Positions 48,387 through 59,790 of a stretch of DNA of 64,000 nucleotides are shown in pieces. Made by a program: the position numbers and the translations under genes. Position 1 is the first letter of the stretch. The number at the start of each line of letters is the position of its first letter. The stretch comes from Fibrobacter succinogenes (GTDB lineage Bacteria > Fibrobacterota > Fibrobacteria > Fibrobacterales > Fibrobacteraceae), in the NCBI GenBank assembly GCA_902794535.1, contig CADBHQ010000008.1:1-64000 (forward strand). Reading direction: 5' to 3'. Under the pieces are notes generated by a model, which did not search any database, was not told the origin of the DNA, and saw only the letters and a program-made list of their open reading frames with translations.

Positions 48387-49031
48387 ATGAGCGAAGAAAA
48401 TGAAGAACTGAAGGAAATCTCGGGCGAAGAACGTCTGAAGAATTTCATGGACTTGGTGCAGAACCAGAAAAACGAACCGTGGGATTCCCGCCTTTCGGAT
48501 ATTTTGGATGCCTTCGAGGATTTCTTGACGCTTCGTCCGGAACCGCCGCAGGAATGGCAGGAAACCTATGCCAAGAGTGGAAAGGAATTTGACTACTACC
48601 AGGTGGTGCTGCCGCAGGATTTCCAGGACCCGTACGAAGACGACTTGGGCAATATCCGCAGACTCCGCAACGAGTTCGAACGTACGCCTTCGACGATGGC
48701 GCTGGAACACGAACTGGTAAGCCGCAACTACTTTATCTTCGAAAACGGCCACGCCGAAGCGATTCCGGCACCGCGTCCGATGCTGATGCTTGAAAGCAAG
48801 GACCGCGATGACGACGAGGAAGAACAGGAAGGCGACATTACGTGGGATTGCTGCATCTCGATTTTCCCGGATGGCAGCTACATTGCCTACAACCTGAATC
48901 ACGATGACGAAGAAGAACTCGGCGAAGACTTTAAGGCCGAATTCGACAAGCATATCGATGTGCTTTCGAAGTTGCAGTTGGTGATTCCGGTGGAAGGCCG
49001 CGATTACGGGATTCTGAATAGCAGATGTTAA
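48387..49031 (+). CDS. Acidic cytoplasmic protein of unknown function
   Basis: Unrecognised 214-residue protein, strongly acidic (for example DDDEEEQEGD), without signal peptide or membrane segment. It has a helical N-terminus (about 10-80) and a mixed C-terminal domain (about 140-205, CCISIFPDGSYIAYNLNHDDEEEL). It lies between aspartoacylase and the HAD phosphatase on the plus strand. The hairpin repeat supplies the only visible leader sequence. Confidence 0.7.
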   Translation: MSEENEELKEISGEERLKNFMDLVQNQKNEPWDSRLSDILDAFEDFLTLRPEPPQEWQETYAKSGKEFDYYQVVLPQDFQDPYEDDLGNIRRLRNEFERTPSTMALEHELVSRNYFIFENGHAEAIPAPRPMLMLESKDRDDDEEEQEGDITWDCCISIFPDGSYIAYNLNHDDEEELGEDFKAEFDKHIDVLSKLQLVIPVEGRDYGILNSRC

Positions 49032-49235
49032 AGGGGAAAGTATGGGACTAAAGTCCCAACAGCTCGGCTCGATCATGCCAGCCCGCTAGCGGTCTGTCGC
49101 GATGCTCGCCTTAGGCTGTTGTCCCCTCGCTTAAGCCTCGGCTTAGCCTAAACCGCACGCTCACATGGCCGTTCCGGAATGTTCACTTAGCGGTTAGGCT
49201 TTCACCGAGTCTTTCGCTACCCTTTCCCCTAGGGG
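49032..49235 (-). ncRNA. Structured intergenic element, copy 1
   Basis: On the minus strand, stem P1 arms lie at 49200-49190 and 49156-49145 (AGCCTAACCGC with GCGGTTTAGGCT, one bulge). They enclose TAAGTGA, ACAT, a small hairpin CCG-GAA-CGG, GGCC, ATGT and GAGCGT. Copy 2 at 59655-59720 keeps the loops and changes the stems. A hairpin lies at each end (TAGGGGT/ACCCCTA and GGGACT-TT-AGTCCC). No coding potential was seen. Confidence 0.6.
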
Positions 49236-49262
49236 TTGGACCCCTAAAACCCCGATGGATGT

Positions 49263-59544: not shown

Positions 59545-59603
59545 ATATGTGGGGAATTTAAAAGAAGGCTAGTTTAGATTCACAGGTTCTATAGCCAGGC
59601 GTT

Positions 59604-59755
59604 ACGGGCTGGCGTATGAAGCCCGTTAGAAGGGGTCGTGTAAGCCACGACGAATGCCTGTCCGCTAAGCGAACATTCGTCGGCCGAAGGCCGAGGCCAT
59701 GTGAGCGTGCGGAGCAGGCAGAGTTGGGGCTGAAACGAGGGGAATGCTTTCCCCT
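59604..59755 (+). ncRNA. Structured intergenic element, copy 2
   Basis: Hairpins in order: ACGGGCT...AGCCCGT (59604-59626) and GTCGTG-TAAGC-CACGAC (59635-59651). Then the core: TGCCTGTCCGC (59655-59665), TAAGCGA, ACAT, TC, GT, CGGCC-GAA-GGCCG (59681-59693), AGGCC, ATGT, GAGCGT, GCGGAGCAGGCA (59709-59720). Last is GGGGAA-TGCT-TTCCCC (59739-59755). Core loops match copy 1 near 49145-49200, and the stems covary. Most of the gene-free 59492-59809 (318 bp) consists of this element and two terminators. Confidence 0.62.
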
Positions 59756-59756
59756 T

Positions 59757-59790
59757 CATAAAAAAACACCGGGCAGAACCCGGTGCCTAA
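59757..59790 (-). terminator. Terminator of the frameshifted barrel gene
   Basis: On the minus strand: GGCACCGGG-TTCTG-CCCGGTGTTTTTTTA, 20 bp after the restored stop codon at 59810. Confidence 0.88.

What the first reader, a model, noticed from the sequence alone, without database searches (positions are those of the whole stretch)
59604..59755. Covarying structured element with conserved internal loops, copy 2 (plus strand)
Shared with copy 1 are TAAGYGA, ACATTC, a GAA-capped hairpin, GCC, ATGTGAGCGT and the P1 context. P1 differs at several positions but still pairs (TGCCTGTCCGC/GCGGAGCAGGCA here; AGCCTAACCGC/GCGGTTTAGGCT in copy 1), keeping a single bulge. The hairpin also changes from CCG-GAA-CGG to CGGCC-GAA-GGCCG. 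ACAT/ATGT pairs and the adjoining GA/GA could form tandem G-A pairs. Conserved loops with changing stems suggest a functional RNA or RNA-templated mobile repeat, not a chance repeat.
Basis: partly seen in the sequence, partly recalled or inferred. Interest (0 to 1): 0.75.

Follow-up and report, generated by a model that had tools for sequence, protein, structure and literature searches.

The report
Modular folded repeats of Fibrobacter
The spot is one copy of a large, previously unnamed family of folded repeats found almost only in Fibrobacter, built like a hairpin handle with exchangeable tips, whose stems keep pairing while their letters change and whose tips differ between strains at the same place.

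Summary
Copy 2 (window 59596-59757, +) and copy 1 (about 49030-49254, -) belong to a genus-specific family. A covariance model of the 64-nt core finds 24 copies in this genome, 23 in a same-species genome, matches in 43 of 80 Fibrobacter genomes, and one weak match elsewhere in 168 genomes of the phylum. Over 72 distinct cores, 93.5% of pair cells are paired and 21 of 23 pairs show double changes.

The core is a cap. Frames end in a G/C hairpin often followed by T on the sense strand. The core also recurs 3' of FISUMP genes.

No reverse transcriptase, Y1/RAYT, IS110 or TnpB was found in this genome, and Rfam has no match. Best reading: a new variant of composite, structured interspersed repeats (BOX/SPRITE/BIME-like), acting as an RNA 3'-end or terminator-like structure when transcribed. 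"RNA-templated" is not supported. Transcription is untested.

The parts
59596..59757 (+). Copy 2, whole element (frame plus cap)
   Evidence: R2 frame model, 57.1 bits, E 2.4e-14
59604..59626 (+). 5' hairpin of the frame, ACGGGCT / AGCCCGT
   Evidence: sequence; same arrangement in other frames
59636..59646 (+). Frame, left strand TCGT-GTA-AGCC; TCGT pairs with ACGA 59735-59738
   Evidence: short helix with several covarying pair types
59647..59727 (+). Exchangeable cap, 81 nt; replaced by an unrelated 124-nt cap at this locus in same-species genome G094
59656..59719 (+). Covarying core (model R1): P1 59656-59665 / 59709-59719 with bulge at 59714, loop TAA/GT, GC/GC, tandem GA/GA (59671-59672, 59703-59704), ACAT/ATGT (59673-59676, 59699-59702)
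   Evidence: R1 96.9 bits, though this core sequence was among those used to build R1; covariation
59680..59694 (+). Apical hairpin TCGGCC-GAA-GGCCGA, C(GAA)G triloop
   Evidence: loop counts
59728..59754 (+). Frame, right strand GGCTGAAACGA and 3' hairpin GGGGAA-TGCT-TTCCCC
49030..49254 (-). Copy 1, whole element: frame, 71-nt R1 cap, 3' hairpin enlarged by a nested module; lies antisense between two + strand genes
49146..49199 (-). Copy 1, R1 core with the short CCG-GAA-CGG tip
   Evidence: R1 68.4 bits, also among the sequences used to build R1
49040..49122 (-). Nested folded module ACAACAGCCTAAGGCGA...GAGCCGAGCTGTTGG plus GGGACTTTAGTCCC inside copy 1's 3' hairpin
   Evidence: sequence and fold; related insert in L086/L087

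Best explanation
The finding is one copy of a Fibrobacter-specific family of modular, folded interspersed repeats. Shown here: the family, its covariation on the sense strand, cap exchange and presence/absence between strains, and recurrence behind FISUMP genes. Inferred: when transcribed it works as an RNA 3'-end or terminator-like structure that ends and shields transcripts; it has no enzyme of its own; and caps move mainly by recombination or gene conversion between frames and by insertions that survive in hairpin tips because they leave the frame folded.
For: Copy number and range. Core covariation: 93.5% of cells paired, 21 of 23 pairs with double changes, slid controls 27-45%. Frame covariation: 90% paired, slid 47-58%. 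Same-species cap swap at copy 2's locus and a second cap-region difference at another locus. Empty site for a whole element right after a stop codon. Sense strand: G.U 44 versus A.C 16 and G.A 62 versus C.T 4 cells; at least 5 T in the 8 nt after the 3' stem in 42 of 106 frames versus 6.7% control; 21 of 24 FISUMP-type copies followed by T-rich tails. FISUMP domain in 32 of 71 upstream neighbours.
Against: No transcript evidence. Neither window copy has a promoter-like match; copy 2's own 3' hairpin is not a clear terminator and copy 1 has none. Copy 1 lies antisense between two + strand genes. After collapsing related loci the same-strand bias towards the upstream gene is weak (21 versus 9 for cores, 22 versus 16 for frames). 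C(GAA)G triloops are also very stable in single-stranded DNA, so a DNA role is not excluded. The cap-moving mechanism was not observed.
Confidence: 0.55

Rival explanations
1. Single-stranded DNA hairpin substrate: the sense strand folds during replication and is recognised by an unknown transposase or recombinase, like REP-RAYT or integron attC; structure is kept because mobility needs it.
For: GNA triloops (C(GAA)G 48, C(GCA)G 2, C(GTA)G 1) are extra-stable in DNA (own knowledge). DNA fold gives the same rod, z = -6.7. Synteny breaks between two same-species genomes are 1.28/kb within 150 nt of frames versus 0.21/kb elsewhere. Empty site.
Against: Y1_Tnp absent from G000, G003, G066 and G067; IS110 absent from 11 of 12 and TnpB from all 12 genomes tested; no attC-type boxes conserved between copies; T-runs fit RNA better. 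The break comparison mixes coding and intergenic DNA.
Confidence: 0.2
2. Independent functional small RNA or riboswitch-like RNA with conserved loops binding a protein or ligand.
For: Conserved loops TAA/GT and GA/GA with changing stems, strong covariation.
Against: Caps are swapped for unrelated folds; no conserved downstream gene family; no promoter-like site; very variable copy number; absent from Rfam.
Confidence: 0.12
3. No selected structure: template-switch repair at imperfect palindromes and gene conversion keep stems paired and make double changes in one step.
For: Some tandem mismatches became perfect pairs; caps and copies clearly recombine.
Against: TAA/GT and GAAA/TGA loops stay unpaired across copies that differ in all stems; strand-asymmetric mismatches; many different pair types in the 3-nt frame helix.
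Confidence: 0.1
4. RNA-templated element (retron, DGR, group II intron remnant).
For: Folded, repeated, next to FISUMP genes whose C-terminal parts differ between strains.
Against: No reverse transcriptase in G000, G094, G003, G066, G067, G019, G041, G052 or G095.
Confidence: 0.03

Closest known systems
BOX elements (boxA-boxB(n)-boxC) of Streptococcus pneumoniae (PMC3049150)
   Same: Composite interspersed repeat; an inner module can be absent or repeated because it folds independently of the outer modules; folded RNA if transcribed.
   Different: Here the inner module is exchanged for unrelated folds, and the host is Fibrobacter. Sequence comparison with BOX was not run.
SPRITE, Rho-independent terminator-like repeat of S. 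pneumoniae (PMC3049150)
   Same: Dispersed repeat resembling an intrinsic terminator.
   Different: In the passages read, SPRITE is a single duplex followed by a uridine-rich stretch; no swappable cap or covarying internal-loop core is described there.
REP/BIME with RAYT transposases (PMC2817692)
   Same: Intergenic folded repeats in mosaics, tens of copies.
   Different: No Y1_Tnp in several high-copy genomes; rods much longer than REPs.
IS elements targeting REPs (IS1397, ISKpn1, IS621; PMC1525189)
   Same: Precedent for insertion into palindromic repeats.
   Different: The nested modules here are short and non-coding, and IS110 is absent from 11 of 12 genomes tested.
Integron attC sites
   Same: Folded sites 3' of genes, conserved in shape more than sequence, with variable tips.
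   Different: No conserved RYYYAAC/GTTRRRY boxes; copy 1's GCCTAAC is GCCTGTC in copy 2; integron integrase not searched.

Membership tests
BOX-type composite interspersed repeat | Modular: outer parts with an independently folding, variable inner part | tested here: met
BOX-type composite interspersed repeat | Sequence homology to boxA/B/C | not tested
   only the paper was read
REP/BIME with RAYT | RAYT (Y1_Tnp) gene in the genome | tested here: not met
   absent in G000, G003, G066, G067; one copy in G094
MITE | Target-site duplication and terminal inverted repeats | tested here: inconclusive
   none obvious at the empty sites examined by eye
MITE | AT-rich | tested here: not met
   G+C of copy 2 frame 0.61, core 0.67
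Intrinsic terminator | G/C hairpin followed by a T-run on the sense strand | tested here: inconclusive
   family: 42 of 106 frames and 21 of 24 FISUMP-type copies; the two window copies: not found by the scan
Retron / DGR / group II intron | Reverse transcriptase | tested here: not met
   none in G000 or the other high-copy genomes
IS200/IS605 TnpB omega-RNA | TnpB gene | tested here: not met
   0 of 12 genomes; no Rfam match
Integron attC | R boxes RYYYAAC / GTTRRRY | tested here: not met
   not conserved between copies
Integron attC | Integron integrase | not tested
Any Rfam 15 family | Match at gathering score | tested here: not met
   only tRNAs in the window; no convincing weak match

The most novel reading that the evidence does not exclude
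A bacterial system in which folded modules are actively inserted into, or exchanged at, hairpin tips by an unknown enzyme that reads structure (RNA or single-stranded DNA), and which also moves or diversifies the FISUMP surface-lipoprotein genes the elements follow.
Probability: 0.15. Interest if true: 0.85.

Novelty: new variant of a known kind. Interest (0 to 1): 0.55.

Why it matters
It describes a large family of folded repeats, not in Rfam and not found in the papers searched, in a major rumen fibre-degrading genus. Its frame-plus-exchangeable-cap design, with tips swapped between strains at the same locus, is a clear natural case for testing how folded repeats spread and stay folded. The association with FISUMP genes and with synteny breaks suggests a part in the turnover of a large surface-protein family. 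The model also lets annotators recognise hundreds of loci.

Tried and rejected
Rfam by score and by E-value: nothing. RAYT/Y1, reverse transcriptase, IS110 and TnpB: not associated. attC by eye: the RYYYAAC/GTTTAGGC likeness in copy 1 is not shared by copy 2. A terminator/antiterminator switch between the frame's left G-run and the 3' C-run: not conserved when the hairpin is GGGAGA/TCTCCC. Strict sense orientation downstream of genes: strong in raw counts but weak after collapsing related loci. The first frame context used longest ORFs and gave antisense artefacts, so it was redone with a hexamer score. Two exact-pattern hits outside Fibrobacter (Bacteroidota, Leptolyngbya) score 12 bits or nothing with R1: chance. 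No match in viral contigs. Paper searches for a Fibrobacter description found none.

Full report
What is there. The window lies in a genome (G000, contig C8) whose relatives in a named collection are Fibrobacter MAGs. Both copies read as described. Copy 2 folds far better than shuffles, and better on the stated strand than on the other. Rfam gives nothing.

Family. A pattern from the core found 11 copies in G000 and further copies in three other genomes of the genus, with none for the reversed pattern. A 64-position covariance model (R1), built from nine type-A cores including the core sequences of both window copies, finds 24 matches in G000, 23 in same-species G094 and matches in 43 of 80 genus genomes. 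In 168 genomes of the phylum only one genome outside the genus, in the same family, matches weakly. In 84,980 named species genomes all convincing pattern hits are Fibrobacter or Fibrobacterales. None is viral.

Covariation. On 72 distinct cores 93.5% of cells pair, 21 of 23 pairs show changes on both sides, and sliding the partner drops pairing to 27-45%. This alignment was fitted to the structure and copies are related, so counts are not independent events; the slid control addresses the first point only in part. The tandem GA appears as G-C/G-C or A-T/A-T in other copies. Mismatches are strand-asymmetric: G.U 44 versus A.C 16, G.A 62 versus C.T 4 cells, so the stated strand is the one that folds.

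Frame and caps. The core is one of several caps. In the larger element a 5' hairpin and a short stem lead to AGAC or AGCC, then a cap, then GGCT, the other half of the stem and a G/C hairpin. With caps shortened to their closing bases the frame covaries by itself: 90% paired versus 47-58% when slid. Its 3-nt helix appears as TGC/GCA, AAC/GTT, TAC/GTA, GGT/ACC, GTT/AAC and others. The frame model R2 matches in 41 of 41 genus genomes, 2 to 77 times, 40 times in G000 and 47 in G094. Its hit on copy 2 is 59596-59757.

Turnover. At copy 2's locus G094, same species, has the same frame with an unrelated 124-nt cap; G003 has the R1 cap; G051 and G041 have a third, 109-nt cap. At another locus the two strains share the frame's 5' half but differ in cap and 3' part, and at a third the R1 tip in G000 carries a further dispersed repeat. 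A whole element right after a stop codon in G094 is missing in G003. In 28 G000/G094 pairs, 14 have a synteny break within 150 nt of the frame: 1.28/kb versus 0.21/kb elsewhere. That comparison mixes coding and intergenic DNA and is only suggestive.

Neighbours. Of 71 upstream neighbours of R1 copies, 32 carry the FISUMP domain PF09603, against 3 of 66 in a mixed set of other neighbours. Behind FISUMP genes the core occurs in two further stem contexts, in tandem, sometimes after a short LEPR-XLL-like peptide frame. Every genus genome has FISUMP genes. Raw counts place most copies downstream of a same-strand gene, but after collapsing related loci the bias is weak: 21 versus 9 for cores, 22 versus 16 for frames.

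How it may work. T-runs after the 3' stem (42 of 106 frames versus 6.7% control; 21 of 24 FISUMP-type copies) suggest RNA that ends there, like an intrinsic terminator. This is a family property: neither window copy passes the simple terminator scan and neither has a promoter-like match. Copy 1 lies antisense between two same-direction genes. So the RNA 3'-end role is an inference. A folded single-stranded DNA role remains possible: the same rod forms with DNA parameters and GNA triloops are very stable in DNA (own knowledge). Known structure-reading mobilisers are missing where tested: Y1/RAYT, reverse transcriptase, IS110 (one exception, G019) and TnpB. Integron integrase and other transposases were not searched.

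Comparison. The nearest described analogue is BOX of S. pneumoniae, whose inner module is optional because it folds independently (PMC3049150), with SPRITE as a terminator-like repeat in the same paper. Insertion of IS elements into REPs is a precedent for nesting (PMC1525189). I file the finding as a new variant of composite structured interspersed repeats, not as a member of BOX, REP or MITE.

Noticed in passing
L053, L069, L066, L083, L084, L100, L114 (3' of FISUMP genes): Short frames with a ribosome-binding-like site, MSKK...LEPRLMMDA or similar, resembling the LEPR-XLL leader motif, end just before the structured element; the likeness is from memory and was not searched.
   Followed up: partly
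L053/L069, L055/L073, L057/L075: FISUMP genes at the same locus in two same-species genomes share the N-terminal part but differ in the C-terminal domain and 3' element, as if exchanged together.
   Followed up: partly
L127, L131, L132, L277, L306: A second cap family with CGAACGAGCC...GGCTAGCGAGTGAG, apparently two tandem-GA steps separated by 2-bp helices; five variants seen.
   Followed up: partly
L267 and orthologues in G003, G094: Another composite repeat with ends CACACGGATT...AATCCGTGTG and nested hairpins such as AATCACGTTAGTGATT.
   Followed up: no
L073:3935-3988 region: A folded insert (TACTCATAGAGCATAACTCAACTAAGGCAACAAGTTGCC...) breaks the 3' strand of P1 in one core copy, an exception to insertion at tips.
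   Followed up: no
L060 (G000:C17:61256-61319): Hybrid core: left half of the FISUMP type III context, right half of type II, suggesting recombination between tandem cores or an assembly join.
   Followed up: no
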